A stretch of DNA of 64,000 nucleotides from Antrihabitans auranticaus. GTDB lineage: Bacteria > Actinomycetota > Actinomycetes > Mycobacteriales > Mycobacteriaceae. The DNA lies in NCBI RefSeq assembly GCF_016481275.1, contig NZ_JAEMNW010000004.1, positions 124,001 through 188,000 on the forward strand, written 5' to 3'. The notes under the pieces were generated by a model. The model ran no database searches and was not told the origin of the DNA. It saw only the letters and a list, made by a program, of their open reading frames with translations. Below are positions 32,143 through 50,819 of this stretch, piece after piece; the first letter of the stretch is position 1, and each line of letters starts with the position of its first letter. A program made the position numbers and the translations under genes.

Positions 32143-33137
32143 AGGCGCGCACGACAGACGAGCAGCGGCGATTCGAGTTCCGGGTCGGAATCGCTGCCAT
32201 CATGGTCACTGTTGTCGCCCTACTTGTCGGGGTCGGCGCCGCGGTGATTCCCTTCGGCGAGACCGTTTATCGGGCCGACTTCGCCACCTCCGGCGACGCT
32301 CGCATCGGCGACGAGGTCCGGGTGGCGGGTATTCCGCTCGGCTCGGTGCGCAAGGTGATGCTCGTCGGCGATCACGTCGAGGTCGAGTTCGGACTTGACA
32401 GCGCAGTGCATCTCGGCGAAGAGACGGCCGTCCATATCAAGGCACTCACCCCGATCGGGGGTCGCTATCTCGATGTGAAGCCGGCCGGTGCGGGCGATGC
32501 CGCGGGGAAAATCATTCCGCGTGAACGCAATACGACGCCGTTCGACCTAGGTTCGGTATTCGAGGAGTCCGCGCCTGCGCTGATGAAGCTCGACGGAGGC
32601 AAACTGCGGCAGTCGATTGCGAAGCTGGCGGGTGCATTCGAAGAGCAGCCGGAGGCTCTGGAAAAGATCCTCCAGAACGTCAACGAGCTCTCGGCAATTG
32701 CCTACGCGCGCAAGCAGCAGCTCGAGCGTTCGTTGAAAGTGAGCACCGAGTTCTTCGAGGTCATGTTGAGCAAGGTCGATCGCCTCGGCAGGGCGGGGGA
32801 CCAGCTGGTCGAGCTCTATCGCGATCTCTCGGCGCGCAGAGAACAGATCGTCACCTTCGCCTCCCAGATCCGCAGATTGTTCGACCACATCACCATTCCC
32901 GTCGGCCTGTTCCACGAATTGATCGAGCCGACGTTGGAGCAGGGGTACGACAGCTTGGACAAAGCGGTCGTCGAGTTGCTGGCACACAAGGACGAACTCG
33001 ATCGGTTCAGCACAGAGATCGCCCCAGTACTCGAATGGTTCTCCCAGCACTCCGAGAACCCGTACGTGACAGTCGACCATTCGGGCGCGACGGTGACCGG
33101 CACGCAGTTGTGCCCCGCGGGGACACCGGGATGCTGA
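32139..33137 (+). CDS. mceC: MceC-family lipid-uptake protein
   Basis: A 332-residue Mce protein. The N-terminal helix spans about residues 14-34, then the Mce domain with YRADFATSGDARIGDEVRVA and GIPLGSVRKV. A long coiled helix follows, with KLRQSIAKLAGAFEEQPEAL and repeated charged heptads, as expected for the central tube. The protein ends in a short cysteine pair, LCPAGTPGC. ATG at 32139 overlaps the mceB stop by 4 bp, and mceD begins inside its last codons. Confidence 0.92.
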   Translation: MKARTTDEQRRFEFRVGIAAIMVTVVALLVGVGAAVIPFGETVYRADFATSGDARIGDEVRVAGIPLGSVRKVMLVGDHVEVEFGLDSAVHLGEETAVHIKALTPIGGRYLDVKPAGAGDAAGKIIPRERNTTPFDLGSVFEESAPALMKLDGGKLRQSIAKLAGAFEEQPEALEKILQNVNELSAIAYARKQQLERSLKVSTEFFEVMLSKVDRLGRAGDQLVELYRDLSARREQIVTFASQIRRLFDHITIPVGLFHELIEPTLEQGYDSLDKAVVELLAHKDELDRFSTEIAPVLEWFSQHSENPYVTVDHSGATVTGTQLCPAGTPGC

Positions 33138-34273
33138 CGGTGAAGCGCGTGACTGGCAACAAGTACGTGGTGGCGATGCTTCTCGTCGTCGCCCTCGCGA
33201 CGGGAGCCGTTGTGACCGTCACAGGCAAGGGGTACTACGACGCACACCGGGGCCCGATACCGATCTGCGGGTACTTCCGCGACGCGGTAGGCCTCTACGA
33301 GGGAAACAAGGTGACGATGCTCGGCGTCCAGATCGGGAACATCACCGAGATCGAGCCGGTCGACGATCATGTCCTCGTCCGAATGGATGTGGACCGCAAG
33401 GCAACACTGCCCGCCGAACTGGGCGCGGTGACCATCGCGAGCTCGATCGTCACCGACCGACGTGTCGAGCTGACGCCCGGATATACCGGCGGTGCGACTT
33501 TCGACTCGAGCGCGTGCATTCCACTCGAGCGCACTCGAACGCCGGTCGGATTCACCGAGTCGATGCGTGCGATCACGCAGCTGTCCAACGACATCACCGG
33601 CAAGGACGAAAACGCGCCACTGCAGGCGCCGCCGCCGGACGAGCTCAGCCATGCGATCAATGTGCTTGCAGGACAGGTCGAATCGGTTGCCGAGCCGTTG
33701 AACGGTTCGATCAAGAACGTCTCCGGACTGCTGGGTGACAGCGCGTCGGCGGCCAACTTCATTCTCCGTCAAGTACTCGACAACGTCGGCAAGATCTCGC
33801 AGGGGCTCGACGCAGGCAACTCGGGTGCCGAGTTCACGTTGTCCGCTGCGGCGGACGCAGCGAATATCCTGACCGAGATCATCCCGGACATAGTCCGGAT
33901 CACGCACGACGTCTCGGTGTGGGTTCCGACGATCGCGCGGTTCATCTACAGGTGGGGAGAGCCGCTCGTTGCCGGCGCGGACTACGCGTACCCGCACGTC
34001 CACACCTTCTTGAGCAACGTGCCCGCGGCTGTCGACGTGCTGCGGCAGATCCCGCCTGCTGCACAGAACATGATGAGGATGTTCGATGAGGACCTGGGCG
34101 CGGGCAGGCTGCAATACCGGCCGCCGAGCTTCCGGGTGAATCCGCAACTCGCGCAGGATGTCTGCATGATCGCCGTCCAGGTCTATCCGGCATGCAATCG
34201 TGACTTCACCACCGGCGGCGCGATGGATCTCGGCATCGTGCAGTTGATCCTCGCCGCTGCAGGGCAACGGTGA
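33131..34273 (+). CDS. mceD: MceD-family lipid-uptake protein
   Basis: A 380-residue Mce protein with an N-terminal helix (about residues 12-32) and a Mce domain starting ICGYFRDAVGLYEGNKVTML and GVQIGNITEIEPV. Long helical segments follow, with a conserved C-terminal Cys pair (QDVCMIAVQVYPACN). ATG at 33131 overlaps mceC by 7 bp; a GTG at 33140 is an alternative. The 3' end overlaps mceE by 4 bp. Confidence 0.9.
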   Translation: MLTVKRVTGNKYVVAMLLVVALATGAVVTVTGKGYYDAHRGPIPICGYFRDAVGLYEGNKVTMLGVQIGNITEIEPVDDHVLVRMDVDRKATLPAELGAVTIASSIVTDRRVELTPGYTGGATFDSSACIPLERTRTPVGFTESMRAITQLSNDITGKDENAPLQAPPPDELSHAINVLAGQVESVAEPLNGSIKNVSGLLGDSASAANFILRQVLDNVGKISQGLDAGNSGAEFTLSAAADAANILTEIIPDIVRITHDVSVWVPTIARFIYRWGEPLVAGADYAYPHVHTFLSNVPAAVDVLRQIPPAAQNMMRMFDEDLGAGRLQYRPPSFRVNPQLAQDVCMIAVQVYPACNRDFTTGGAMDLGIVQLILAAAGQR

Positions 34274-35397
34274 CGTCGATGCTGCGACGAGTTGCTCTCA
34301 TTGCCGTCCTCGGTGCATTTCTTGCCGGATGCGCTGTTCGGCCTCTCGACCTCCCACTGCCGGGAACGCGCATGAGTGGGCCTACTTACCGGATCGACGT
34401 CGAGTTCGGCAGCGTACTCAACCTGCCGCTGCGAACTCGCGTCGAACTCAACGGCGCGGTCGTAGGTATGGTCGAAAACGTCGACGTCCGTTCGGATCCC
34501 GACGCGTCCGTACCGTCGCTGGCTGCGGACAAACAGCCGTCCTACCTCGCGATCGCGACACTCCAGATCGACTCGAAGGTCGAACTACCTGCGGAAACGA
34601 CCGTCGAAGTGCGTCAGCACACGCTGTTCGGCGACTTGTTCATCGGACTGAACCTCCCCGAAAAGCCCTCGGGGCGAACGCTTACCGATGGCGACACGAT
34701 TCCGATCACGCAGACGCGGCCAGCGGACGCGCTCGAGGACTACATGATCGCCGTCGTAGGTTGGGTGAACGGCGGATCGATCCCGTTCATCCAAAACTTC
34801 CTCACCGACGTCAACAGTGCGTTCCCGCAGCGCCCAGCAGATTTCGAGAAGTTTCTCCAGAAGTCGACGCTGACATTGCATCGGATTGCCGAATCGAACG
34901 ACCAGCTGGCGCAGGTGCTCGACCACGCGAGCCAGGTGATCGATGTAGCTGGGCAGGCAGAAGACTTGTGGCGCTTCGTCTTCGCCGATACTCCGGTGCT
35001 GCTGGACGTGGTGTTGCGCGTACTTCCCGACCTCGTCACGTTCGTCCGGGGCATCCGTGACATCGGCGCATGGGGCGGTGAGGTCGGCGATGTGCGTGCT
35101 CAGTCCGTCACCGATGCCCTCGGCGCGTGGACGCCTGTACTGCAGTCGATCATCATGTCGCCCAACACAATTCCGAAGAACATGGCAGCAATCGACGCGC
35201 TACTCAGCAACAAGATCGGCCCGTTCCTTGCCGCGAACGGCCGGCCCAACATCATCGTCTCCGACGTCGTACCCCAGACGCCGGCGAGCGCTCTGACCGG
35301 TGACCAGGACAAGGACGCGCGAATCATCGCCGCCAACGAGCAGGCGTTCCGCGACAAGGTCACGCCCGTACTGCGGATGCTTGGGTTCGTTCGATGA
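34270..35397 (+). CDS. mceE: MceE-family lipoprotein
   Basis: A 375-residue Mce protein that, as usual for MceE, carries a lipoprotein signal: hydrophobic helix at residues 8-19 and lipobox FLAGC with Cys21. The Mce domain begins TYRIDVEFGSVLNLPLRTRV, with NGAVVGMVENVDV. It would anchor one subunit of the Mce hexamer by lipid. GTG at 34270 overlaps the mceD stop by 4 bp, and its own stop overlaps mceF. Confidence 0.92.
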   Translation: MTSMLRRVALIAVLGAFLAGCAVRPLDLPLPGTRMSGPTYRIDVEFGSVLNLPLRTRVELNGAVVGMVENVDVRSDPDASVPSLAADKQPSYLAIATLQIDSKVELPAETTVEVRQHTLFGDLFIGLNLPEKPSGRTLTDGDTIPITQTRPADALEDYMIAVVGWVNGGSIPFIQNFLTDVNSAFPQRPADFEKFLQKSTLTLHRIAESNDQLAQVLDHASQVIDVAGQAEDLWRFVFADTPVLLDVVLRVLPDLVTFVRGIRDIGAWGGEVGDVRAQSVTDALGAWTPVLQSIIMSPNTIPKNMAAIDALLSNKIGPFLAANGRPNIIVSDVVPQTPASALTGDQDKDARIIAANEQAFRDKVTPVLRMLGFVR

Positions 35398-36347
35398 GGG
35401 GGAAGATTGCCGTCTCTGCGGCCGCGATGGTCGCGCTGGCGCTGGCAGGTGCGTCCTATCTCGTGGTCGGCGTCTTCAAGTACGACCCGGGGGAGTCGAC
35501 AGTCCATCTCGTCGTCGAACTACCGAGTTCCGGTGGGCTCATGGAGACATCGCCGGTCACCATGAACGGTCTGCAGATCGGCAAGGTGACTGCGCTGGAC
35601 GAGAGCATGAGCGGTGTCGTCGCAGACCTCGCGGTCGAATCGTCCTACCCGATCCCCATGGATTCGGTTGTGACTGTTGCCAACTTGTCCGCAATCGGCG
35701 AGCAGTACTTGAATTTCGCGCCGAAGACCGCGCAGGGACCGTATTTCGCCGACGGTGCACGGATTTCGGGCAGCCAGGTCGTGCCGCCGTTGACGATAAC
35801 GCGAGCGCTCAACGGGCTCGACGACCTCATGGGACAGGTTCGACCGGACGATATCAACAGGCTGTTGCGTAGTGCCGATGTCGCGGTCGACGGTGTTCGG
35901 CCCAATATTGCGCGACTCGTTCACGCAGGCAGCATGTTCGCGACGACGCTTCGGCAGAACAGGGATCTCGTGTCCCGCCTGCTGCAGTTCGTCGCCGGCG
36001 CGTCGGCGGCGTCCGGGGAGTCGCAGGAAGCGGCGGCCGAGGCCATCGGACGGCTCGGGGCGACACTGATTCCAGAACTGCCTGCCTTGATCGACGACGC
36101 GATCACGATCGTCGATTCGAGCGGCGGAACGAAGATCGCTCCCTACACGCCGCTGTTGAGCAAGCTCATCGGCTACATCGAGCTTTTGCTCGGCCCGGAC
36201 ACCGAGCCGATCCTCGACATCCTGCAACCCGTCCTGTTCGACCCGATCCGCAGCCTGCCGATCGACGCGAACAAAGTGATGGACGTTCTCCTGCAGGCTT
36301 TTCCGAACGGACACGGGATGCGTTTGCTCGTGGAAATACCGAAATAA
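35394..36347 (+). CDS. mceF: MceF-family lipid-uptake protein
   Basis: A 317-residue Mce protein, the sixth and last of the set. An N-terminal helix (about residues 5-24) precedes a Mce domain with HLVVELPSSGGLMETSPVTM and NGLQIGKVTALDE. The C-terminal half is helical. ATG at 35394 overlaps mceE by 4 bp. The Mce-associated gene follows 9 bp after the stop. No MceG ATPase lies in the operon, which is normal since one ATPase usually serves several mce loci. Confidence 0.92.
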   Translation: MRGKIAVSAAAMVALALAGASYLVVGVFKYDPGESTVHLVVELPSSGGLMETSPVTMNGLQIGKVTALDESMSGVVADLAVESSYPIPMDSVVTVANLSAIGEQYLNFAPKTAQGPYFADGARISGSQVVPPLTITRALNGLDDLMGQVRPDDINRLLRSADVAVDGVRPNIARLVHAGSMFATTLRQNRDLVSRLLQFVAGASAASGESQEAAAEAIGRLGATLIPELPALIDDAITIVDSSGGTKIAPYTPLLSKLIGYIELLLGPDTEPILDILQPVLFDPIRSLPIDANKVMDVLLQAFPNGHGMRLLVEIPK

Positions 36348-39122: not shown

Positions 39123-40217
39123 ATGAACCGAAATATCGCCGCGCTCGCCAGCGCACTGCTTGCCGTCCTTGCGACGGTAATGGTGCCCGCGACTGTGAGC
39201 GCCCATCCGTCGATTCCCGGCAGCACCAGCGGCGACGGCCTGATCTGGGTGCCCAGTGCCGGCATCGGCTCTATCCAGGGCATCGATCCGGTGACCAAGC
39301 AGGTCGTCAAGACTGTGCAGGGCGCCGCTGACCACCCGGTGGTGATCAAGGCCAACGCAGACGGCACGCTGCTGTTCACGAACAGCTTCGGTCCGCTCAT
39401 CTGGGAAGTCAGCGTCACCGACGTCCGGACCGGGCAGATCATCAAGCGGATCCCGACGTTCGGCAACGCCTGGGCGGTGACAGCGATGTCGCACGACCAC
39501 AAGTACCTCTACGTGCCGACCTCCCTGAGCGCGGTCCAGGTCATCGATACCAGCACACTGGAGACGGTCCGCGTCATACCGGTCCTGTTCCCGCCGGGCG
39601 GGCCGATCCATCTCGAGGTCGCGAAGGACAACAAGTCCTTCTATGCCATGCATTTGGCAGGTTTCATTACCAAGTACGACGCCGTCACGGGCGCTCCGCT
39701 CGCACCGCCGCTGTGGGGGTACGGCATCGGCCCAGGCTGGGGTGGGCTGTCCGAGAACGGTGACACGTTGTACGCGATCAACCTGTTCTCCGGCGTGACC
39801 GCAATCGACACCGCGGGCTGGTACGTCAAGCGCGTGCAGTTCTCAGGACTGGTGTCGGGTCCCGTGTCGGCGACGCTGACCCCTGACGGCGAACGCCTGT
39901 GGGTATGCAACTGGGGCGACAACCTGATCCTGGTTTACGACGCACACACGATGGAACTCATCCACAAGGTGAAGTCGAACGGCCTGCCCATCTACGCCGG
40001 ATTCTCGGCTGACGGAAAAACGGCCTACGTGAGCAACCTCGGCCCGTCGTCGGACAAGATTCCCGACTACCTGTTCCCGGCCAAGCTTGCTCAGGTCGTG
40101 TACCCGATCCTGAATCCCGAAGGTTCGACGTTGGATTTCTACGACACCGCGACCATGACGATCACCGATCAGGTGACCGTGAACAACGGCCCGATCGCCG
40201 GCGTCTACCCGCGGTAG
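39123..40217 (+). CDS. Secreted YncE-like beta-propeller protein
   Basis: A 364-residue exported protein. A signal peptide with hydrophobic core at residues 6-24 ends in VSAHP, a good cleavage site. The mature part is built of repeated short beta blades of the YncE/PQQ-like type, for example VIDTSTLETVRVIPVL, TAIDTAGWYVKRVQ and LTPDGERLWVCNWGDN. Such propellers bind ligands or partner proteins outside the cell; no catalytic motif is seen. ATG at 39123 has AGGAG at 39108-39112; an in-frame ATG at 39105 would add six residues. A degenerate operator upstream may place it in the GntR regulon. It is followed by a clear terminator. Confidence 0.8.
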   Translation: MNRNIAALASALLAVLATVMVPATVSAHPSIPGSTSGDGLIWVPSAGIGSIQGIDPVTKQVVKTVQGAADHPVVIKANADGTLLFTNSFGPLIWEVSVTDVRTGQIIKRIPTFGNAWAVTAMSHDHKYLYVPTSLSAVQVIDTSTLETVRVIPVLFPPGGPIHLEVAKDNKSFYAMHLAGFITKYDAVTGAPLAPPLWGYGIGPGWGGLSENGDTLYAINLFSGVTAIDTAGWYVKRVQFSGLVSGPVSATLTPDGERLWVCNWGDNLILVYDAHTMELIHKVKSNGLPIYAGFSADGKTAYVSNLGPSSDKIPDYLFPAKLAQVVYPILNPEGSTLDFYDTATMTITDQVTVNNGPIAGVYPR

Positions 40218-40234
40218 AACTGTCTCGTGTCCGA

Positions 40235-40270
40235 ACCGAAAGCAGGCTTGCCGGCGGGCCTGCTTTCGGT
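40235..40270. terminator. Hairpin terminator after the beta-propeller gene
   Basis: ACCGAAAGCAGGC at 40235-40247 pairs perfectly with GCCTGCTTTCGGT at 40258-40270 around a 10-base loop. It lies 18 bp after the stop and separates the lipid island from the lanthipeptide cluster. No long U-tract follows. It could serve the convergent FHA gene as well. Confidence 0.75.
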
Positions 40271-40323
40271 CTGATGTTCAGGGATTCCCCGGCTCTGCCG
40301 CCGGCGACCGCCGGGCTCCAACA

Positions 40324-40968
40324 TCAGGTGCGCAGCATCGCCAGTGTGACCGCGCCGCGGCGCAGGGCTTCATTCGCCAGACGCACGCGCCGGTCCCCCT
40401 CCGCCGGGATCCCGAACTTGTCGTACATGTTCTGCAGATGTTGCTTGACGGCCGCATCCGTGACGACCAATTCGAGTGCCAATTGCCGCGTCGACGCAGG
40501 TACGGGAAACCCATCGCTGGAAACCAGCGGCCGACAGAGCGCGAGCAGGACGTCGAGTTCGCGCGGCGTCAGCCGGGGCGGTGCGACGAAAGTTTCGACG
40601 GACCGGGTCGGTTCGTCGCCGAGTGTGCTGTCGAGACGACTCCGGTCCCAGAACACCAAGCGTGACTTGCCAATTCGCATCTCGTCGCCGGAGCGAAGGA
40701 CGCGCTCGCCGGCAACCTTCTCCCCATTGACATAGGTACCGTTCCGGCTCCCGATGTCGCGAAGCGACCACGCCGATCCGTGAAACTCGAGCACAGCGTG
40801 GAGGCGGGAAACGGTCGCATCGTGGTCGATCGAGACCACATTGGTCGCCGCTTTACCGATCGTCACAGTTCTGCCGGTCGACACAGTGTTGCCGATCGTC
40901 GCAGTGTGTTCGGTCAACGAGAAAAGCTCCCGTCCAGACGGTCGCCAGATCTCCAGGTGGGAAGCCAT
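40324..40968 (-). CDS. FHA-domain transcriptional regulator with C-terminal HTH
   Basis: A 214-residue protein. Residues about 25-95 form a forkhead-associated phosphothreonine-binding domain with VSRLHAVLEF, WSLRDIGSRNGTYVNGEKV and RSGDEMRIGKSRLVF. Residues about 125-210 look like a winged or LuxR-type helix-turn-helix (LTPRELDVLLALCRP, then VTDAAVKQHLQNMYDKFGI). It stands divergently at the edge of the lanthipeptide cluster and probably controls it, with the FHA domain reading a Ser/Thr kinase signal. The kinase is not in the window. ATG at 40968 faces the exporter operon across about 125 bp. Confidence 0.8.
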   Translation of the reverse strand: MASHLEIWRPSGRELFSLTEHTATIGNTVSTGRTVTIGKAATNVVSIDHDATVSRLHAVLEFHGSAWSLRDIGSRNGTYVNGEKVAGERVLRSGDEMRIGKSRLVFWDRSRLDSTLGDEPTRSVETFVAPPRLTPRELDVLLALCRPLVSSDGFPVPASTRQLALELVVTDAAVKQHLQNMYDKFGIPAEGDRRVRLANEALRRGAVTLAMLRT

Positions 40969-40970
40969 TC

Positions 40971-41020
40971 GCCAATTCTATTTGGCAGGGGCGCAAAACT
41001 CTGTGGGGAGAAGTCCCCCA
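40971..41020. promoter_or_regulatory. Two short inverted repeats in the divergent lanthipeptide-cluster promoter region
   Basis: GCCAATTCTATTTGGC at 40971-40986 (arms GCCAA/TTGGC) and TGGGGAGAAGTCCCCCA at 41004-41020 (arms GGGGA/TCCCC) lie between the FHA regulator and the exporter genes. Either could be an operator for the FHA-HTH protein. No second copy was found to confirm this. Confidence 0.35.
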
Positions 41021-41095
41021 TCTGGCAGCTTCCCCGCGAGGCCCCCATGCTCCTCCAACCCCTGACACATGACCATGACTCCGGGGAGCAAGCCG

Positions 41096-41545
41096 ATGGA
41101 ACCAGGCACCGACGCCGTTGCGATGGAGCGGGATTCGATCTTTCGTCAGGGCTGGCGCGACAGTCGTTCCGCGTCGAAGGGGCCGGGCAAACTGCTCGAG
41201 CAGCCGCGGTGGATCACCACGGGACTCGTCGCCCTCGGTGCACTGTCGCTTGCAGGGGTGGCCGCAGCGAACGCGGTGACCGTTGCCCGCACCGAGGCGC
41301 TCACCGCCGTGACGCAAGGCGACTCTGTCGTGGCAATGCGGTCCGGCGAGCCGGCTCCCGACCTGGGCACCGTCGCCGAGTTTCGCGACGCGTCGGGCAT
41401 GTCGTGGCCCGCGATCGTCATCGAGGTGACGACGACGCAGGTGCACGCGCAACTGGACGGTCCGCGCTCGCTGGTGGTCGGCGAACTCGTCGTTCCCGCG
41501 GCCGAGGACCGGCTGATCGACATCCTCGTGCCGAGGCTCTGGTGA
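41096..41545 (+). CDS. Small single-pass membrane protein of the lanthipeptide exporter operon
   Basis: A 149-residue protein with one transmembrane helix (about residues 43-62: LVALGALSLAGVAAANAVTV) and an outside domain ending in VHAQLDGPRSLVVGELVVPA and IDILVPRLW. No family is recognised with certainty. Its place directly before a C39 ABC exporter, with overlapping stop and start (TGATG), is that of a membrane-fusion (HlyD-like) partner, but it is much shorter than typical ones. ATG at 41096 has GGGGAG 8 bp upstream; an in-frame ATG at 41069 would add nine residues. Confidence 0.65.
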   Translation: MEPGTDAVAMERDSIFRQGWRDSRSASKGPGKLLEQPRWITTGLVALGALSLAGVAAANAVTVARTEALTAVTQGDSVVAMRSGEPAPDLGTVAEFRDASGMSWPAIVIEVTTTQVHAQLDGPRSLVVGELVVPAAEDRLIDILVPRLW

Positions 41546-43683
41546 TGCCGCGCCGAGGCTCGATTCCGTTCGTCGCGCAAGCAGAGGTCGCCGATTGCGG
41601 TGCCGCCGCGTTGGCCATGGCGCTGGGCTACCACGGCCGCCATGTCTCGTTGGCCGAGATGCACGAAGCCACCGGCACCGGACGCGATGGAATCGACGGC
41701 CGTCGACTCGCCGAAGCCGCCGCTACCTACGGTTTACGTGCTCGCGGGGTTTCCACCGAACTCGACGACCTGCGCGTGCTGCCACGTGGCACTGTATTGC
41801 ATTGGAGCTCGGCTCATTTCGTCGTTCTCGACTCGGCGTCGAAGCGCGGGGTAACGATCGTCGATCCCGCCGTCGGACGCTGCAGCGTCTCCTGGAGCGC
41901 CGCCAGCGACCTGTACAGCGGTGTCGCGATCATGCTCGAGCCGACCGACTCCTTCGTCGCGGGCGGCCGCCGAGCGCCGGGTGCACTGCATCACGCGCGC
42001 CGGTTGCTGACCCGCTCGAGCGGGATCGGCTCGGTACTGGCGACGTCGGTCGTCGTGCGGATAATGGCACTGGCCGTGCCCGTACTCACCGGCCTGGTCG
42101 TCGACCGCGTGGTGCCGAACGGCGACGGTCACCTCCTGAAGGTGCTGGGCGCCGTGATGGCCGCCCTCATCGCGTATTCGGTTGCCGCGAGCTACCTTCG
42201 GGCCCATCTGCTGCTCCGGCTGCGCAGTCGGCTCGATATCACCATGACGCTGGATTTCCTCGAACATCTCGTGGATTTGCCGTACGCGTTCTTCCTGAAG
42301 CGGTCGTCGGGTGACCTGATGATGCGGCTGCGCAGCAACGCGACCGTTCGTGAGATCTTGACGACCGGCACCCTCGCGGCGCTGCTCGACGGCGCGCTCG
42401 CGACGCTGTATCTGGTTGTACTCGTCGTGCTGTCGCCTGTGCTCGGGATGCTCGTGGCAGTTCTCGGTGCAGCCCAGGTGACGGTGTTGCTGGCAGCTCG
42501 ACGCCGCAACCAGCATCTGATGGGGGAGGCGCTGGCGACGGAGGCGCACTCGCAGTCCTACGCGTACGAGATGTTCTCGGCAGTCGAGACGCTCAAGGCC
42601 GCGGGCGCGGAACGACGCGCCGTCTCGCATTGGACCAACTTGTTCGTCGCAGAACTCAACGTCTCGCTGCGACGCGGTCGCCTCGAAGCCCTCGTGGAGA
42701 CCGCGATCCATGGCCTGGCGCTGCTGTCGCCGATCGCTGTCCTGCTCGTCGGGGCTCACCTGGTTGGCAGCGGTGCTTTGTCGCTCGGTTCCATGCTTGC
42801 GCTGGCTGCCCTCGCGTCCGCCTTTCTCGAGCCCCTGGGCGTCCTCGTTGCGACAGCGCTGCAGGTGCAGTTGCTCGGCAGCTACCTCGCGCGCCTGGAC
42901 GACGTCTTCAACACGCCGACCGAGACAGCCGGGCGTGAGCTGCGACATGCGCCCGATCTGGCCGGATCCGTGCGTGCCGAAGGGCTGGGCTTCCGCTATC
43001 AGCAGGACGGTCCGGCGATCGTCGAAGGCGTCGACCTCGCCGTGTCGCCCGGCCAGGTCGTGGCAATTGTCGGGCGGTCCGGATCCGGCAAGTCCACGCT
43101 CGGCCGGCTGCTGCTCGGCCTGTATCCGCCGTCGTCGGGCCGCGTGCTGATCGACGATCTGGACATCTCGACCTTGCACCCGCGAGGCCTGCGCTCTCAG
43201 ATCGGCGTTGTCACGCAGGACCCCTATATTTTCGGACTCTCGATCCGCGACAACTTGCTCATGGCAGACCCGAACCTGCCGATGCACCAACTCGAGGAAG
43301 CCGCAGAGGCGGCCGGAATTCTCGACGACATCAACGCAATGCCGATGGGCTGGGAAACCGCTCTCGTCGACGGTGGGGCGTCGCTGTCCGGGGGACAGCG
43401 ACAGCGACTCGCCCTGGCGCGAGCACTTGCACCGCGCCCGCGGATCCTGTTACTCGACGAGGCAACGAGCAGCCTCGACACCGTCACCGAGGCAAGGGTG
43501 CACGCCAATATCGCGCGGCTCGGCTGCACTGTCGTCGTCATCGCACACCGGCTCGCCACCGTGATCGACGCCGACCACATCGTTGTGCTCGACGCGGGCC
43601 GGGTGGTGGAAGCCGGTACCCACTTCGAACTCGTCGCCGCAGACGGCCATTACGCCCAGCTCGTTGCCGGGCAACTCGTGTGA
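41545..43683 (+). CDS. C39 peptidase-ABC exporter for the lanthipeptide
   Basis: A 712-residue bifunctional exporter. The N-terminal C39 peptidase has Gln12, Cys18 (AEVADCGAAALAMAL), His91 (SSAHFVVL) and Asp107 (VDPAVG), a complete catalytic set. A six-helix transmembrane domain occupies about residues 155-440. The ATPase carries Walker A GRSGSGKST at about 510-518, the signature LSGGQRQRLALARAL, and Walker B RILLLDEATSSLD. It should cut the leader of a double-glycine peptide while exporting it, and the precursor at 46889 has exactly such a GG site. ATG at 41545 overlaps the upstream stop; LanB follows 13 bp later. No separate LanP protease is needed. Confidence 0.9.
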   Translation: MPRRGSIPFVAQAEVADCGAAALAMALGYHGRHVSLAEMHEATGTGRDGIDGRRLAEAAATYGLRARGVSTELDDLRVLPRGTVLHWSSAHFVVLDSASKRGVTIVDPAVGRCSVSWSAASDLYSGVAIMLEPTDSFVAGGRRAPGALHHARRLLTRSSGIGSVLATSVVVRIMALAVPVLTGLVVDRVVPNGDGHLLKVLGAVMAALIAYSVAASYLRAHLLLRLRSRLDITMTLDFLEHLVDLPYAFFLKRSSGDLMMRLRSNATVREILTTGTLAALLDGALATLYLVVLVVLSPVLGMLVAVLGAAQVTVLLAARRRNQHLMGEALATEAHSQSYAYEMFSAVETLKAAGAERRAVSHWTNLFVAELNVSLRRGRLEALVETAIHGLALLSPIAVLLVGAHLVGSGALSLGSMLALAALASAFLEPLGVLVATALQVQLLGSYLARLDDVFNTPTETAGRELRHAPDLAGSVRAEGLGFRYQQDGPAIVEGVDLAVSPGQVVAIVGRSGSGKSTLGRLLLGLYPPSSGRVLIDDLDISTLHPRGLRSQIGVVTQDPYIFGLSIRDNLLMADPNLPMHQLEEAAEAAGILDDINAMPMGWETALVDGGASLSGGQRQRLALARALAPRPRILLLDEATSSLDTVTEARVHANIARLGCTVVVIAHRLATVIDADHIVVLDAGRVVEAGTHFELVAADGHYAQLVAGQLV

Positions 43684-43696
43684 CAAGGAGCTTGCA

Positions 43697-46600
43697 ATGC
43701 CTGAATCGTTCGACGCCCAATTCTTCGTGCTGCGCGCCCCGCTGCTGCCGCTGGAGGAACTGGACAAGCTGCGCGCCGATCAAACATATTGGCGCACATT
43801 GGTTTCCCGTCCGGACGTGCGGGAGGCGTTGTACCTGGGGTCGCCCGCACTCACGCGGCGGCTCGACGACGACGATCCCGACGATCGGGTCGTTGCCTCA
43901 CTGACCGCATATCTGGTGCGGATGTGCACCCGGGCAACACCTTTCGGACTCTTCGCCGGCTGCTCGCTGGGCACGGTCGGTGCCGATACAGCCTTGCTGG
44001 TCGACGGTCCTGAGGGGACCACCCGGCGCAGCCGGCCCGACACCGAGGTGCTCACGACGCTCGTCGAGCGGCTCGTTGCCGACCCCGCAACACGGCCTTC
44101 GATGGCGGTTGAGCCCAACTCCAGTCGCTATCACGCGGCCGGTGCGCTGCGGCTGATCGAGAGCCGGTGGCAAAAAGACCGTCGCACACATCATTTGGTC
44201 GTCGTCGAGGACGACGCGCCGTTGCGGTTCGCGCTCGAGGCGGCGACAGGTGGTGCTGTCGTCGATGACGTCGTCAAGGCTGTCGCCGCACAGGTGGAGG
44301 TGGATCTCGACGAGGCGCGCGACTACGTCGACGCGCTCGTCGCGGCGAAGGTGCTCACGCCCGTGGCCGAGCCGACGGTGACCGGTCCCGAGCCGCTGGC
44401 GCACGTACTCTCGTCCCTGCGCGGGCACGATTCGACGGTGACCGCGTTGGCGCGTGTATCGAGCGAACTCGCCGCACTGGACGCGGCGGGGCTCGGCAAT
44501 CCGCTCTCGTCCTACGAATCCGCTACGGCGACACTGCGCGAGTTCGCCGACGGCAACGACGCCCACCTGATCCAGGTCGACCTGCACCGCAAAGGGTCGG
44601 GCCTGACGCTCGGCTCCGACACCGTCGACCTGATCACCAAGGGATTGGCGCTGCTGCACAAGGTTTCCCCGAGTTCCGAGGACCCGGCCCTCGCGCGCTT
44701 CAAAGCAGAATTCGCGGCGCGCTACGCAGACCGCGAGGTTCCGCTGATGGAAGCGCTCGACGAGGAACTCGGTATCGGTTTCGACCGGTCGCACCACCCG
44801 GCTTCCGACGAATCACGGTTGCTCGCCGGCCTCGACCTCGGTGGCGAAGCACAGCCGTCCGAGTTCGGCGCCCGCGACGCGGTGCTGCTCGACGTGCTGC
44901 TCCGCGCGCGCGAAAGTGATTCCACCAGTATCGAACTGGATGCCGACCTGATCAAGCGGCTGGAGCCGCCCACGCGGTTGCCGTTGCCCGACGCCTTCGC
45001 GGTGAGCGCCAATCTGCTAGGCAGTGGCGTCGAGATCGAGAGCGTCTGCGGCCCCTCCGGCGCGGAACTGCTCGGGCGGTTCTGCCACGGCGACGCCGCA
45101 TTGGAACAGGCGGTGCGCGCACATTTGCGCGCCGAAGAAGCCCACGCACCCGGCGTCGTGTTCGCCGAACTTGTTCACCTGCCCGAAGGGCGCATCGGCA
45201 ACATCCTGACCCGCCCCGTGCTTCGGGGCCACGAGCTGATCCTGCTCGGCCGCTCGGGCGCGCCGACGGACCGCCAGATCGGCGTCGACGAGTTGACCGT
45301 TCGCCTCGACGGCGACCGGATCGTCCTCTTCTGCCCGCGACTGGGCGCCGAAGTGCGACCCCGGCTGACAACTGCGCACAACGCGGCCTGGCGAGGGTTC
45401 GGGGTCTACCGGTTTCTCGCGGCACTGCCGGGCGACGGAGTGGCCGACGCATTCGGCTGGAACTGGGGTGCGTGCGCGTCCGCGCCGTGGCTGCCGCGCG
45501 TGACCGGCGCCGCGGGCTCCGTCGTGCTCAGCCGAGCCCGCTGGCGTCTGTCGGCGGCGGAAATCGCCGCCGTCACCGGCCGTGACCCGGTCGCCGCTTG
45601 GGCTGAATTGGCCAGCCGGCGCGGCCTTCCCACCGAACTGCTCATCGTCGACGGTGACAACCGCCTGTACATCGATACCGCAAGTGCCGCACTGACTTCG
45701 ATGGCCGCCAAGGTGTTGCGTGGGCGCACGTCCGCACTCGTCGACGAGGTCCTGTCCACCGGCACAGCGGTCGGCCCCCAAGGCCGCTTCGAGCACGAAC
45801 TGATCGTGCCGTTCGTTCGCCGCGCCGAGCCTGAGGCAGCGCCGGACCAGCGGCCGACCGGCGCCGCGACCGCCGTGCGTCGGACGTTCACTCCAGGCGG
45901 TGAGTGGCTCTACCTCAAGGTCTACACGGGGACGGCGACGGCAGACCGAGTTCTGACCGGCGCTCTCGGACCTGTGCTCGCCCAACTCGCCGACGCGGGC
46001 GTCGCGGATCGGTGGTTCTTCCTTCGCTACGGCGACCCCGACCACCACCTGCGGGTTCGTCTGCACGGCGAACCGTCGGCACTGCTCGGTGCGGCCATGC
46101 CCGCCCTGTCCGATGCGCTGGCACCACGGATCGAGGACGGCACCGTGTGGAAGATCGTGGTCGATACCTACCAACGCGAGATCGAACGCTACGGCGGTGA
46201 CGCCGGTATCGAACTTGCCGAGCAGATCCATGCGGTCGACAGCGTCGCCGTCATCGCTGCGCTGCCCTTGCTGGACGGTGAGGAGGACGCGCGGTGGAAG
46301 CTGTGCCTGTATGCGACCGATCGGCTGCTGGCCGACGCCGGGCTGGACATCGCGGCACGGCGCGCCTGGGTCAGGGACGCTGCCGCCGGATACCGAACCG
46401 AGTACCCGAACGCTCCCGGGCTCGACCCGGGCATCGGAGCGCGCTGGCGCACCGAGCGTGCCGATCTCTCACGGCTTCTCGACGACACCGTCGATCATCC
46501 GTGGGAACCTGTGCGCGAGGTGTTCCGGGAACGATCTGTCGGATTGGCGCCGCTGTTCGCCGAGTTGGCAGCACGACGTGACCAGTTGACGGCGCCGTAC

Positions 46601-46735
46601 CTCGATGTTGTGCGCAGCGTCAGCCACCTGAACTCGGTGCGGCTGCTCCGCTCGGCCGCTCGTACCCACGAACTGGTCCTGCTGAGCTTCCTGGAGCGCT
46701 ACTACGGGAGCCGGCTCGCGCGTGGCCTGTCGTGA
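43697..46735 (+). CDS. lanB: Full-length class I lanthipeptide dehydratase (LanB)
   Basis: A 1012-residue LanB, the size of NisB-type enzymes. The N-terminal glutamylation domain (about residues 1-700) has the family motif RATPFGLFAG at 79-88. The C-terminal elimination (SpaB_C) domain, about 728-1005, includes EWLYLKVYTG and WFFLRYGDPDHHLRVRLHG. In this family glutamyl-tRNA supplies Glu to Ser/Thr side chains, then elimination gives dehydroalanine/dehydrobutyrine. Both halves are on one polypeptide, unlike split thiopeptide-type enzymes. AAGGAG at 43685-43690 precedes the ATG. The precursor gene follows about 150 bp downstream. Confidence 0.9.
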   Translation: MPESFDAQFFVLRAPLLPLEELDKLRADQTYWRTLVSRPDVREALYLGSPALTRRLDDDDPDDRVVASLTAYLVRMCTRATPFGLFAGCSLGTVGADTALLVDGPEGTTRRSRPDTEVLTTLVERLVADPATRPSMAVEPNSSRYHAAGALRLIESRWQKDRRTHHLVVVEDDAPLRFALEAATGGAVVDDVVKAVAAQVEVDLDEARDYVDALVAAKVLTPVAEPTVTGPEPLAHVLSSLRGHDSTVTALARVSSELAALDAAGLGNPLSSYESATATLREFADGNDAHLIQVDLHRKGSGLTLGSDTVDLITKGLALLHKVSPSSEDPALARFKAEFAARYADREVPLMEALDEELGIGFDRSHHPASDESRLLAGLDLGGEAQPSEFGARDAVLLDVLLRARESDSTSIELDADLIKRLEPPTRLPLPDAFAVSANLLGSGVEIESVCGPSGAELLGRFCHGDAALEQAVRAHLRAEEAHAPGVVFAELVHLPEGRIGNILTRPVLRGHELILLGRSGAPTDRQIGVDELTVRLDGDRIVLFCPRLGAEVRPRLTTAHNAAWRGFGVYRFLAALPGDGVADAFGWNWGACASAPWLPRVTGAAGSVVLSRARWRLSAAEIAAVTGRDPVAAWAELASRRGLPTELLIVDGDNRLYIDTASAALTSMAAKVLRGRTSALVDEVLSTGTAVGPQGRFEHELIVPFVRRAEPEAAPDQRPTGAATAVRRTFTPGGEWLYLKVYTGTATADRVLTGALGPVLAQLADAGVADRWFFLRYGDPDHHLRVRLHGEPSALLGAAMPALSDALAPRIEDGTVWKIVVDTYQREIERYGGDAGIELAEQIHAVDSVAVIAALPLLDGEEDARWKLCLYATDRLLADAGLDIAARRAWVRDAAAGYRTEYPNAPGLDPGIGARWRTERADLSRLLDDTVDHPWEPVREVFRERSVGLAPLFAELAARRDQLTAPYLDVVRSVSHLNSVRLLRSAARTHELVLLSFLERYYGSRLARGLS

Positions 46736-46888
46736 CGTGCATGCCGTTCGACACGGCACGCGGCGCCAAAATCATTGTTTACCAAAAGATTCCGGAAAAA
46801 AATTGTCTCCCCCGGACCGGCCGGCTGCTCTTACTTATGAGCGAGGCCCACGGGGGCAACGCCGACACAACACCCACAAGGAGAAGAA

Positions 46889-47038
46889 ATGAACACCAAC
46901 CGTGACAAGCTTGCCCTTCGTCGCAGCAGCATCCGTTCGCTGACGGTCGACGAGCTGCGGACCGCACATGGCGGCAAGCCCAAGTTCTCGGAGCACGGCA
47001 CCCAGTGCGCGACGTCCGACAAGTGCAAGACCAAGTAG
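46889..47038 (+). CDS. lanA: Lanthipeptide precursor peptide (LanA), 49 residues
   Basis: A short gene encoding 49 residues. Residues 1-29 form the leader: KLALRRSSIRSLTVDEL, then TAHGG, the pattern L..eTiR.Lt.deL..v.GG of class I leaders with a double-glycine site. Cleavage after Gly29 would leave a 20-residue core beginning KPKFSEHG, with Cys40 and Cys46 (core 11 and 17) and Ser34, Thr38, Thr42, Ser43 and Thr48 as dehydration candidates. Two thioether rings are possible, for example Thr42 to Cys46 and Ser34 to Cys40. The core is basic and has no long hydrophobic run. AAGGAGAAGAA lies directly upstream. Placement between LanB and LanC supports the call strongly. Confidence 0.87.
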   Translation: MNTNRDKLALRRSSIRSLTVDELRTAHGGKPKFSEHGTQCATSDKCKTK

Positions 47039-47079
47039 TTCGACGGTCTTAAGCCTGAGTGAAGTCGACACACCCCCCG

Positions 47080-47109
47080 CCGCCCCATGGCCCACCGGCC
47101 ATGGGGCGG
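47080..47109 (+). terminator. Strong hairpin after lanA
   Basis: CCGCCCCATGGCC at 47080-47092 and GGCCATGGGGCGG at 47097-47109 form a perfect 13-bp stem with a four-base loop, followed by a short TTG. It lies 41 bp after the precursor stop and before the sigma factor. A partial terminator here would make lanA mRNA more abundant than the downstream sigma/lanC message, a common arrangement in peptide clusters. Confidence 0.7.
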
Positions 47110-47224
47110 TTGTCGTGTGCGCGACGATACTTGCCGCGGGGACAGGAAATCCTTCCCTGTCAGGGGGTCGATTCTCGTGCTCGGGAGATTCTGCTACGAG
47201 TGACTTTTGCGGACCATTACGTCC

Positions 47225-47971
47225 ATGACATCGACATCCGGACGCAGCCACGGCGAGTGTCCCACTGACGCCGACCTGGCCAAGGCCGCCGCGGCCGGCG
47301 ACCGCACCGCGTTCGCCGCGATCTATCAGCGATACTCCGTTCGGCTGCACAAGTATTGCGTGACGGTCGTGCACGATCATCATCTCGCCGCGGACTGCGT
47401 GCACGATGCCTTCTGCGCGGCGGCAACAGAGCTGCCGAGGCTACGGGACCCGGACAAGCTGGCCCCGTGGCTGTATGCGATCACTCGGCGGAACGCATTG
47501 CGCGCCTTGCGTCTTCGACACCGTGAAGCCGCCAGCGACGAAGTTGCCGACAGCCCTTCGGCCGAGCCGGAGCCGTTCACCGTCGCATCACGAAACGAGC
47601 TGGCGCACTTGCTGACCCAAGCCACCGAAGGCTTGCCGGAGCGGGATCGCCGGGTGCTGGAGCTCACCTACCAGCAGGGCCTCACCGGCCCGGAGCTCGC
47701 AGCTGCCCTTGGTATCAGCCATGATTCGGCGAAGAAGTTGCTACAGCGAGTACGTGCGACAGTCGAGCGATCCATCGGCGCACTGTTGGTCGTGCGCCGC
47801 GCCGACCTGAACGGCTGCCGGACGTTGGCCGCGACGCTGGCCGGTTCGGACGGGAAGTTCACCGTCCTGCTCCGCAAACGCGTTGCGCGCCATATCGAGT
47901 CGTGCGCGCCCTGCGACGACTATCGGCGCAGCGTCTTCAACGCGGCCACCATCTTGCGCGATGCGGCCTGA
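47225..47971 (+). CDS. ECF-type sigma factor with C-terminal CxxC (zinc-finger-like) motif
   Basis: A 248-residue sigma-70 family protein. Region 2 (about residues 25-90) has FAAIYQRYSVRLHKYC and the AADCVHDAFCAAATELPRLR helix; region 4 (about 130-185) has LPERDRRVLELTYQQGLTGP and LAAALGISHDSAKKLLQRVR. The last 60 residues end in ARHIESCAPCDDYRRS, with Cys227 and Cys230, reminiscent of zinc-binding anti-sigma (ZAS) heads that are usually separate proteins. Placement inside a lanthipeptide cluster, overlapping lanC by 11 bp, suggests it drives cluster transcription. ATG at 47225 is chosen; the longer TTG-started frame lacks support. Confidence 0.82.
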   Translation: MTSTSGRSHGECPTDADLAKAAAAGDRTAFAAIYQRYSVRLHKYCVTVVHDHHLAADCVHDAFCAAATELPRLRDPDKLAPWLYAITRRNALRALRLRHREAASDEVADSPSAEPEPFTVASRNELAHLLTQATEGLPERDRRVLELTYQQGLTGPELAAALGISHDSAKKLLQRVRATVERSIGALLVVRRADLNGCRTLAATLAGSDGKFTVLLRKRVARHIESCAPCDDYRRSVFNAATILRDAA

Positions 47972-49118
47972 CTCGGTGTCGCCGTGGCGTGGGCTGCTGC
48001 GCGCGGAGGAACGCGAGCGTGCATTACGGGTCGTCGACGACATCGCGCGGCGGCTGGGTTCGCTGCACCCCGAGGACCTCAACCCGGCACTGTGCGACGG
48101 TTCGGCGGGAATCGCTCTCGCACTCGCGCATGTATCTCTCGCGACCGGCGGCGATCGGGCGACTGCCGACGATTTCCTCTGTTCGGCCTATGACACGCTC
48201 GGCGCGGCCCCTGCCGCTGCGGGCCTCAGCCTTGCCTCCGGAGCGTGCGGTGTCGGGTGGGTCGGCGCGCACTTCGACCGGCTCGCGGGAGTGGAACCGA
48301 CATCCGGCGACATGGACGACCTGTTGCTCCCGCTGCTCGAGGAGTGGGACGGGCCGTGGGAACTGTTCTACGGGTTGGTCGGCTTCGGGGTCTACGCGCT
48401 GGAAGCCGGCGGCGGCTGCCTGGCTCCCGTGCTCGCGCGGCTGTCCGAGATCGCCGTCGACGACTGGGTTACCGACACCCTCACGCTCTTCGGCCCCACT
48501 TCGCGGCGCCCACCGCGGTACGTCGATCTCGGGCTGGCGCACGGGGTGCCCGGCGTGCTCGCGCTGACGAGTGCGGCGGCGCGGTCGGGCGACGGCCGGG
48601 CCAGTGCACTGGTCGCGTCGGCCGCACGATGCTTGCTCGCACACGAATTTCGGCACACCTCGCTGGACAGTCGCTTTCCGGCGACGATCGAACCCGGTGT
48701 TGAGCCCACGCCGACCCAGGTGGCGTGGTGTTACGGCGACGCCGGTGCGGCGCTGGCACTGGCTGCCGCAAGCGCTGCGCTGACGGACCCCGATATCGGT
48801 GCCGCCGCGGCTCGCGCTGCCGCAGCGGCCGCGACGCGGTCCTACGAGACCTCGGGCGTGGCCGGTCTCGGACTGTGTCACGGAACGGCCGGAGTCGCAC
48901 ACACCATGGGCAGGCTGGCGTGCCATGAGGAGTCCGTCACACCGGCCGCGCGGGAGTGGGCGCTACGGCTGCTGCACGAGGCCGAATCCGGACGGTTGCC
49001 CGAAACCCCGGGCGTTCTCGACGGACAGGCGGGCGTAGCGCTGGCGCTGCTCGCCGCGGCGACCGATATCGACCCGACGTGGGATCGCGTCCTGTTGTTG
49101 TCGTCCATCGGTTCGTAG
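47961..49118 (+). CDS. lanC: Lanthionine synthetase C-like cyclase (LanC)
   Basis: A 385-residue LanC cyclase that joins cysteine thiols to dehydrated residues. The barrel has the glycine-rich repeats LCDGSAGIALALAHV, LASGACGVGWVGAHF and DLGLAHGVPGVLAL. The zinc ligands are Cys257 (WCYGDAGAAL), Cys306 and His307 (LCHGTAGVAH), a complete set. ATG at 47961 overlaps the sigma-factor gene by 11 bp. It is the last gene of the cluster; no immunity (LanFEG or LanI) gene is seen. Confidence 0.92.
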   Translation: MRPDSVSPWRGLLRAEERERALRVVDDIARRLGSLHPEDLNPALCDGSAGIALALAHVSLATGGDRATADDFLCSAYDTLGAAPAAAGLSLASGACGVGWVGAHFDRLAGVEPTSGDMDDLLLPLLEEWDGPWELFYGLVGFGVYALEAGGGCLAPVLARLSEIAVDDWVTDTLTLFGPTSRRPPRYVDLGLAHGVPGVLALTSAAARSGDGRASALVASAARCLLAHEFRHTSLDSRFPATIEPGVEPTPTQVAWCYGDAGAALALAAASAALTDPDIGAAAARAAAAAATRSYETSGVAGLGLCHGTAGVAHTMGRLACHEESVTPAAREWALRLLHEAESGRLPETPGVLDGQAGVALALLAAATDIDPTWDRVLLLSSIGS

Positions 49119-49158
49119 CTGCCGAGCGGTCGGAAACACAGTATCCGGACTCGCAACG

Positions 49159-49204
49159 ACGACCTGGGACTTCGGAGGTACGACCTGGGATTCCGAAGGA
49201 ATCC
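49159..49204. repeat. Short tandem repeat and hairpin between lanC and tRNA-Lys
   Basis: ACGACCTGGGACTTCGGAGG at 49159 is repeated imperfectly from 49180, a 21-bp period. GGATTCC (49188-49194) and GGAATCC (49198-49204) form a 7-bp hairpin with a three-base loop. It may end transcription of lanC or of the convergent tRNA. Confidence 0.4.
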
Positions 49205-49227
49205 GCAGGTAGATCGGTATTTCTTGG

Positions 49228-49300
<73 letters not shown>

Positions 49301-49589
49301 GAAACCGTGCGGGAGAGACCATAACAGGATCGGGGCTCGGAAGTGAAATCCGTTTGGGTTGCGGGTGTGTTTCGGTTCGGTGCGGGCTGTAACGATCCGG
49401 GTCCGCCGCCCCATTTCAGTGATAGAAGTCCCAGGGCTGCAACGTACTTGTGATTGGTTCGCGGGCTCTGGTGCTGGCAGAATAGGGGCTTGCACACGGT
49501 CTCGACGCGCAGTCCCTCAGGGGATGGGGAAAGCGCATTTGGGTCGACGCAGACGTGGCAGCTGAGTGAGAACATGAAGCGGAGTTCGC

Positions 49590-50819
49590 ATGAAACTATG
49601 TCGCGGCAGTGATCGACGGACCACGACCCGGATAAAGACCGCGCTCATCGCGGTCACGGTGTCGTTTGCCGGCATCGCCATGTTGTCCGGGTGCACCGTG
49701 GGCAGCGAGGACGCAGCGCCCGCGTCCGCGCCCATCGATTCGAATCCTTTGACCGAGCTGATGAAGCCGAAGGTGACATCGGTCGTCAAGGACGGTGACG
49801 TCGGCATTTCGCCGAGCGTTCCGATAAAGACCGAGGTCGCGGACGGAAAGTTTGCCGCCGTCACCTTACTGACTCCCGACGGAACGCCTGTTCAGGGCGC
49901 CATCGCGCCGGACGGAAAGTCCTGGCAGAACACCGAACCGCTCGGCTACAACCGGGAGTACACGCTGACCGCTGAGGCGTTGGGCCTCGGCGGCTCGACG
50001 TCGGCCCGGATGGTCTTCACGACGAGCGTGCCGGACAACTTGACCAAGCCCTACCTGAACCCCGGAGACAACGCCGTGGTCGGCATTGCGCAGCCGGTGG
50101 CGATTCAGTTCGACGAGGTGATCCCGGACCGCCTGGCGGCGCAGCAAGCCATCACCGTCGTCACGGACCCGCCGGTCGAGGGCGCGTTCTACTGGGTCAA
50201 CGGACGTGAGGTCCGGTGGCGGCCCGAGAACTTCTGGAATCCTGGGACAAAGGTCACAGTCGACGTCAACGTCTACGGCAAGGACCTGGGCAACGGCGTC
50301 TTCGGGTCGGAGGACATCAGCACGCATTTCACGATCGGTGACGCGGTGATTCTGACCGCCGACGACAACACGAAGGAAGTTGTGGTCACGCGCAACGGCG
50401 AGGTGATCAAGACGATGCCGACGTCGATGGGCAAGGCGGGCGACGAGACGCCCAACGGCACCTACATCATCGCCGACCGGCACGAACGCATCATCATGGA
50501 CTCGTCGACGTACGGCGTGCCCTCGGACTCACCCGATGGGTACAAGACGCCCGTCGACTATGCGACGCGCATGTCCTACAGCGGCATCTTCCTGCACTCG
50601 GCGCCGTGGTCTGTCGGGCAACAGGGCTACTCGAACGTGAGTCACGGGTGCTTGAACCTGAGTCCAGCCAATGCGATCTGGGTCTTCAACAACACCAAGC
50701 TCGGCGATGTCGCAATCGTTAAGAACACGAGTGGGGGCACCCTTTCGGGCACTGACGGGCTCGGCGACTGGAACATTCCGTGGTCGGAGTGGAAGGCGGG
50801 CAACGCGGGCCAGCAGTAG
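49590..50819 (+). CDS. L,D-transpeptidase lipoprotein
   Basis: A 409-residue cell-wall L,D-transpeptidase that would make 3-3 cross-links in peptidoglycan. A signal peptide with lipobox MLSGC (Cys35) is followed by two Ig-like domains (about residues 60-250) and a YkuD catalytic domain (about 255-385) with HSAPWSVG and SHGCLNLS, catalytic Cys354. This is the layout of LdtMt2/LdtMt5 (LppS). ATG at 49590 has GGAG upstream. The 289 bp between tRNA-Lys and this gene show nothing else. A strong terminator follows. Confidence 0.92.

What the first reader, a model, noticed from the sequence alone, without database searches (positions are those of the whole stretch)
40324..49118. Class I lanthipeptide cluster with an embedded sigma factor and FHA regulator
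Seen: full-length LanB, LanC with a complete zinc site, C39-peptidase ABC exporter, a 49-residue GG-leader precursor, an ECF-like sigma factor and a divergent FHA-HTH protein. Established: LanB, LanC and C39 exporters are the core set for class I lanthipeptides with double-glycine leaders. Inference: the combination of sigma factor and FHA control, no two-component system and no recognised immunity gene, next to a mycolate-type chromosome, may be an undescribed lanthipeptide family.
Basis: partly seen in the sequence, partly recalled or inferred. Interest (0 to 1): 0.88.

Follow-up and report, generated by a model that had tools for sequence, protein, structure and literature searches.

The report
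Mycolata lanthipeptide cluster with own sigma
An actinobacterium carries a compact, apparently self-regulated gene set that should make and export a small sulfur-bridged peptide, and mycobacterial relatives carry the same machine without the bridge-forming enzyme and almost without cysteines in the peptide, which suggests one family that can make bridged or unbridged products.

Summary
Best reading: a class I lanthipeptide pathway of the GG-leader/C39 type, in a clade that my samples found only in Nocardiaceae and Mycobacterium. The sigma looks pathway-specific: GTCnCC-N18-TCYTAC stands before a lanA in 8 of 8 sigma-bearing loci, and the window's version occurs once in the 6.5-Mb genome. Its tail holds C-x24-HIESCxxC, like a zinc anti-sigma motif; the cluster has no separate anti-sigma gene. 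The surprise is in the relatives: LanC and cores with 2-3 Cys go together in 4 of 4 Nocardiaceae genomes, while 11 mycobacterial genomes with 63-69% identical LanB have no stand-alone LanC, and of 22 precursors read there 20 have no Cys and 2 have one; 14 of 22 are Gly-Thr repeats. I infer dehydrated, non-thioether peptides there. ECF control of a class I lantibiotic and GG-leader class I precursors are both known already. No product was seen and no chemistry was tested.

The parts
40324..40968 (-). FHA domain protein with C-terminal HTH-like region, divergent regulator
   Evidence: Pfam FHA E 2e-17; relatives beside 5 of 14 intact loci
   Evidence: no Pfam hit; relatives in 14 of 14 intact loci plus L091; model of modest confidence, pLDDT 67; no accepted fold match
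41545..43683 (+). C39 peptidase - ABC exporter
   Evidence: Pfam Peptidase_C39, ABC_membrane, ABC_tran
43697..46735 (+). LanB dehydratase with glutamylation and elimination domains
   Evidence: Pfam; aligns with NisB; residues recalled as essential are invariant in 9 relatives
46805..46834 (+). bipartite promoter motif GTCTCC-N18-TCTTAC of the cluster sigma (inferred)
   Evidence: single match in the own genome
46889..47038 (+). LanA precursor, GG leader (29 aa) and 20-aa core with 2 Cys
   Evidence: only family member in the genome at E <= 1
47079..47110 (+). hairpin after lanA, 14-bp stem, possible attenuator
   Evidence: stem of 14 or more after 14 of 19 lanA genes; no T run follows, and the terminator scan does not list it
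47225..47971 (+). ECF sigma factor with C-x24-HIESCxxC tail
   Evidence: Pfam; tail in 8 of 8
47961..49118 (+). LanC cyclase
   Evidence: Pfam LANC_like; 80% to L030, 64% to L031 and L037
49225..49300 (-). tRNA-Lys next to the cluster, site of gene turnover (context)

Best explanation
A complete class I lanthipeptide pathway. LanB glutamylates Ser/Thr of the LanA core with glutamyl-tRNA and eliminates glutamate to give Dha/Dhb; LanC adds the two core Cys to two of these, giving two thioether rings; the C39 domain cuts after Gly-Gly and the ABC part exports the 20-residue product, perhaps with the small membrane protein. The cluster's own ECF sigma drives lanA from a promoter that is unique in the genome; some transcription passes the hairpin after lanA into sigma and lanC, giving feed-forward control. 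The sigma's zinc-like tail stands in for a separate anti-sigma, and FHA may bring in Ser/Thr-kinase input. Shown: gene set, motifs, conservation, motif uniqueness. Inferred: all chemistry, the wiring, and any use of the product.
For: Domain calls; LanB residues invariant and aligned with NisB; LanC zinc-site residues kept in 8 aligned LanCs; LanC and multi-Cys cores together in 4 of 4 Nocardiaceae genomes; LanA under purifying selection; lanA promoter motif in 8 of 8 sigma-bearing loci, 11 strict sites in 194 kb against 0 in 297 kb of 16 sigma-less sources, one match in the own genome, none in two Antrihabitans without the cluster and none in two Smaragdicoccus-group genomes without the sigma; sigma tail in 8 of 8.
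Against: No product or transcript is known. The motif was learned from the same loci it was counted in. In the 15 genomes only 9 of 25 matches lie in the cluster, and 7 reversed-pattern controls match; the own genome has 3 control matches. A sigma-70-like site also stands before lanA at 46748. The strict motif is not before the window's small membrane gene, and the hairpin lacks a T run. Sigma is absent from 6 and FHA from 9 of 14 intact loci. Zinc binding and FHA input are untested.
Confidence: 0.75

Rival explanations
1. The window's product is not thioether-bridged: LanC is idle here and the peptide acts as a dehydrated linear peptide, as inferred for the mycobacterial relatives.
For: Relatives with the same LanB, exporter and leader do without LanC.
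Against: LanC is kept with its zinc-site residues and at 64-80% identity in the related loci; the core keeps 2-3 Cys in 4 of 4 LanC-bearing genomes.
Confidence: 0.07
2. In mycobacteria the LanB-modified peptides are cyclised by an unlinked LANC-domain enzyme, or LanB stops at glutamylation, so that the Cys-free branch is not a dehydrated-peptide class.
For: G656 has a LANC-type domain in an 880-aa frame on another contig; two precursors have one Cys.
Against: 10 of 11 genomes show no LANC domain at all (G474 and G686 are under 90% complete); the elimination-domain residues are invariant in the aligned mycobacterial LanBs (5 of the 9 rows); 20 of 22 precursors have no Cys to cyclise.
Confidence: 0.2
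3. The sigma factor is a general stress sigma that happens to sit here; lanA is read mainly from a housekeeping promoter.
For: Sigma-70-like site at 46748-46775; motif matches outside the cluster in mycobacteria, 16 of 25 matches over 15 genomes.
Against: Sigma and motif occur together; a single match in the own genome, at lanA, and in A. stalagmiti.
Confidence: 0.15

Closest known systems
Class I lanthipeptides with GG leaders and C39 proteases (Bacteroidetes, LxLxKx5L leaders; PMC7268733, passages read)
   Same: LanB, C39 exporter, GG cleavage site, leader LALRRSSIRSL fits the pattern with R for K
   Different: Actinobacterial clade with dedicated ECF sigma, small membrane protein and, in some loci, FHA; a Spirosoma cluster with 33% identical LanB has two LanC genes, HlyD, and a histidine kinase and response regulator nearby
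Microbisporicin cluster (PMC4973701, passages read)
   Same: Actinobacterial class I lantibiotic under a pathway-specific ECF sigma; putative attenuator after the precursor gene
   Different: MibX has a separate membrane anti-sigma MibW and motif GAACC-N15-GCTAC, and does not act on the mibA promoter; here the motif stands before lanA and no anti-sigma gene is seen
Cyanotins / prochlorosin-type precursors lacking Cys (PMC7268733 and PMC11251773, passages read)
   Same: Precedent for Cys-free cores beside lanthipeptide enzymes
   Different: Those are substrates of LanM-type synthetases; the mycobacterial loci have LanB with the cyclase gone
ECF sigmas with C-terminal extensions: CorE, ECF48/52/53 (PMC8999054, passages read)
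   Same: Regulatory or metal-binding tail fused after region 4
   Different: Short tail with C-x24-HxxxCxxC and, from the sequence, no TM segment; group not assigned here

Membership tests
Class I lanthipeptide pathway (window) | LanB with dehydratase N and C domains | tested here: met
Class I lanthipeptide pathway (window) | LanC with zinc-site Cys, Cys, His | tested here: met
   role of the residues recalled
Class I lanthipeptide pathway (window) | precursor with leader and a core holding Ser/Thr and Cys | tested here: met
   5 Ser/Thr and 2 Cys in the core
Class I lanthipeptide pathway (window) | (methyl)lanthionine in the product | not testable with these tools
   no product known
NCBIfam NF038153 class I lanthipeptide leader | score above curated cut-off of 22 bits | tested here: not met
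   window precursor no match; 3 of 10 family precursors at 13.5-17.7 bits
Lanthipeptide (mycobacterial relatives) | LanC-type cyclase and Cys in the core | tested here: not met
   no stand-alone LanC in 11 genomes; 20 of 22 precursors without Cys, 2 with one
ECF sigma with zinc anti-sigma (ZAS) tail | HxxxCxxC with an upstream Cys/His ligand, zinc-dependent | tested here: inconclusive
   motif present in 8 of 8 (spacing); zinc not testable; comparison with RsrA-type spacing recalled
HlyD-type adaptor (small membrane protein) | family profile or fold match | tested here: not met
   no Pfam hit; best PDB fold matches are rotary-ATPase barrels at E 1.3e-3, not accepted

The most novel reading that the evidence does not exclude
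One GG-leader LanB machine has moved between two chemistries within the mycolic-acid bacteria: with LanC it makes thioether-ringed peptides (window, A. stalagmiti, Smaragdicoccus group); without LanC, in mycobacteria, it makes Gly-Dhb repeat peptides, a LanB-only class of dehydrated ribosomal peptides that LanC-anchored genome mining cannot see. In most of these loci it is switched by a dedicated ECF sigma with a built-in zinc/thiol tail.
Probability: 0.45. Interest if true: 0.8.

Novelty: new variant of a known kind. Interest (0 to 1): 0.6.

Why it matters
If right, the window's cluster is the bridged end of a family whose other end has dropped the bridge: a natural experiment on what LanC and cysteine add. 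It predicts repeat-built, dehydrobutyrine-rich peptides in mycobacterial relatives, which mining anchored on LanC-domain proteins (as in PMC7268733) would miss. It also offers a minimal regulatory unit, one sigma and in the own genome one promoter match, whose signal can be tested directly.

Tried and rejected
Phage or plasmid origin: no support. The precursor has no match in 72,556 plasmid records at E <= 1; the best listed LanB matches there are 34% identical or less. The cluster's G+C is somewhat above the rest of the window (0.655-0.715 in 1-kb bins from 41001 to 49000, against 0.595-0.681 elsewhere), which I did not explain.

A fast-evolving LanC (39% beside LanB 70%) was my error: LanC had been translated in the wrong frame. 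Searches are superseded for LanC.

HlyD identity of the small membrane protein: not accepted. A single loss of LanC in mycobacteria: neither shown nor excluded (AU p 0.053). Left att site of a tRNA-Lys island in the window: none found. Rfam in 40000-50000: only the tRNA. A PDB search with the sigma model was not run (model pLDDT 76, pTM 0.44).

Literature: searches returned no paper; some searches listed 10-25 papers each of more, with nothing on this family in the rows shown; only open PubMed Central papers are held. Rows dropped: the fragmented G686 (L091, L092) is in the tallies but not in the trees; L119 is in neither tree; L117, L100 and L090 are not in the second tree. The precursor profile search covered 9 of the 11 mycobacterial genomes; G474 and G686 were searched by pattern in the fetched stretches only.
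Full report
WHAT IS THERE. The window lies in a 6.5-Mb genome that shares its genus code with G001; G001's contig has the length of the Antrihabitans stalagmiti contig found by name, so the genus is very likely Antrihabitans. LanB is 88% identical to that copy. The small membrane gene overlaps the ABC start at 41545 and sigma overlaps the LanC start at 47961. LanB aligns with NisB (4wd9) over profile positions 19-855. R75, R79, T81, D115, D295, R786 and R831 fall on residues that I recall as essential in NisB; R13 and H977 lie outside the printed alignment and are matched from recall. All nine are invariant in 9 relatives, 5 of them mycobacterial. The zinc-site residues of LanC are kept in 8 aligned LanCs.

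PRECURSOR. LanA is MNTNRDKLALRRSSIRSLTVDELRTAHGG / KPKFSEHGTQCATSDKCKTK. At E <= 1 it is the only member of its family in the genome. Among 13 aligned precursors, 11 of the 29 leader columns are invariant, GG among them; the Cys-bearing cores share FS[DE]HG[ST]xCATSD[KR]C. Whole-gene dN is below dS in 8 of 8 pairs tested; the margin is small in one (first precursor of L080 and L083, 0.09 against 0.13), whose core alone has dN above dS. Ring placement is not predicted with confidence; Ser14-Cys17 is the closest pair (inference).

WHO ELSE HAS IT. LanB of this clade: 4 of 101 genomes (own included); 9 loci in the named genome collection from 23 pattern hits; 5 of 401 genomes of the family sample (own included; 13 of 401 have any match); 11 of 396 Mycobacterium genomes (22 of 396 have any match; one of the 11, G686, is split over two contigs). 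At E <= 1e-60 the order and class samples gave 8 of 298 and 4 of 296 genomes, own included; apart from the own genome the best score 803-923 bits, against 1575 or more for full-length clade members, and served as outgroups. Two of four Antrihabitans genomes lack the cluster.

THE SPLIT. Pfam LANC_like is found in 5 of the 15 genomes that hold the clade: the 4 Nocardiaceae genomes, in the cluster, and G656, in an 880-aa frame on another contig. tblastn with the correct LanC finds it in L030, L031 and L037 and in none of L080-L089, L091 and L092. Core Cys number 2-3 in the 4 LanC-bearing genomes. In the 11 mycobacterial genomes I read 22 precursors: 20 in the table, one more printed there from L087, and one on another contig of G689. 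Twenty have no Cys and two (L081, L087) have one. Fourteen of 22 hold GNGTG or GTGTG, such as RGNGTGTGTGNGTGTGTGNGTGTGTRR; L084 and L085 have repeats around GTSVINPSGG, and L092 Gly-Ser repeats. The leader is shared. In the outgroups, LanC is present in L115-L118; Cys-bearing GG precursors were read in L116-L119, none by my pattern in L115; sigma, FHA and the small membrane gene gave no hit there at E <= 0.01. So LanC and Cys are likely ancestral to the wider group. But the trees put the LanC-bearing loci inside the LanC-less ones; holding the LanC-less rows together costs 10.8 log-likelihood units, AU p 0.053. Repeated loss, or loss and regain, is possible. These are few evolutionary events, so 4 of 4 against 0 of 11 (one-sided p 0.0007 if independent) overstates the evidence.

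CONTROL. Eight of 14 intact loci carry the sigma. In all eight GTCnCC-N18-TCYTAC stands before a lanA: 11 strict sites in 194 kb of sigma-bearing sources (8 before lanA, 3 before the small membrane gene), none in 297 kb of 16 sigma-less sources, 0.1 expected; the looser form gave 22 against 6, 3.5 expected. The pattern was learned from the same loci. In the own genome the window's version matches once, at lanA, with 3 matches of the reversed control. With one more base, 15 genomes gave 25 matches and 7 controls: A. stalagmiti one, at lanA; the two Antrihabitans without the cluster and the two Smaragdicoccus-group genomes none; mycobacteria 24, of which 8 lie in the cluster, and those of the sigma-less G451, G474, G670 and G689 lie outside it. 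So the motif is specific in Antrihabitans and less so in mycobacteria. A hairpin with a stem of 14 or more follows 14 of 19 lanA genes examined; it has no T run. The sigma tail C-x24-HIESCxxC is in 8 of 8. FHA relatives lie beside 5 of 14 intact loci (window, L030, L080, L083, L087). S2-37 (L038, L088), which has no sigma, has an FHA-BTAD regulator and a Ser/Thr kinase near its cluster.

PLACE IN THE GENOME. The cluster lies beside tRNA-Lys. The order tRNA-Lys, L,D-transpeptidase, tRNA-His is kept in all four Antrihabitans genomes. The cluster DNA shared with A. stalagmiti is 40330-49105, with other genes on both sides there. G002 holds two extra copies of the tRNA-Lys 3' end, so this is a turnover site; the domain calls in the cluster show no mobility gene.

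KNOWN OR NEW. GG-leader class I precursors with C39 are known from Bacteroidetes (PMC7268733), ECF control of a class I lantibiotic is known (PMC4973701), and regulatory ECF tails are known (PMC8999054); I read passages of these, not whole papers. New as far as my searches went: the mycolata clade, its sigma/promoter pair, and the LanC-less branch. For the window alone the verdict is a new variant of a known kind.

Noticed in passing
L129:4454, L129:6440, L129:13590 (G002): Two extra 42-bp copies of the 3' end of tRNA-Lys lie upstream of the intact tRNA-Lys, as attachment-site repeats of integrated elements would; tRNA-Lys may be an integration hotspot in Antrihabitans.
   Followed up: partly
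L133:4542-4763 (G689): Orphan precursor on another contig with the same leader, a long Gly-Thr repeat, then eight Pro and TKVIFW.
   Followed up: no
L038:2085-6376: FHA-BTAD regulator and a Ser/Thr kinase with kelch repeats stand next to the cluster of S2-37, which lacks the sigma.
   Followed up: partly
window 47140-47157: Near-palindrome AGGAAAnCCTTyCC upstream of the sigma gene, conserved in 7 of the 8 upstream stretches printed; possible operator.
   Followed up: no
window 33035-36347: Three neighbouring MlaD/Mce-type genes, part of an mce-like operon.
   Followed up: no
L093, L094 (G484, G760): Other Mycobacterium genomes hold distinct class I clusters with LanB about 30% identical and their own LanC.
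   Followed up: no
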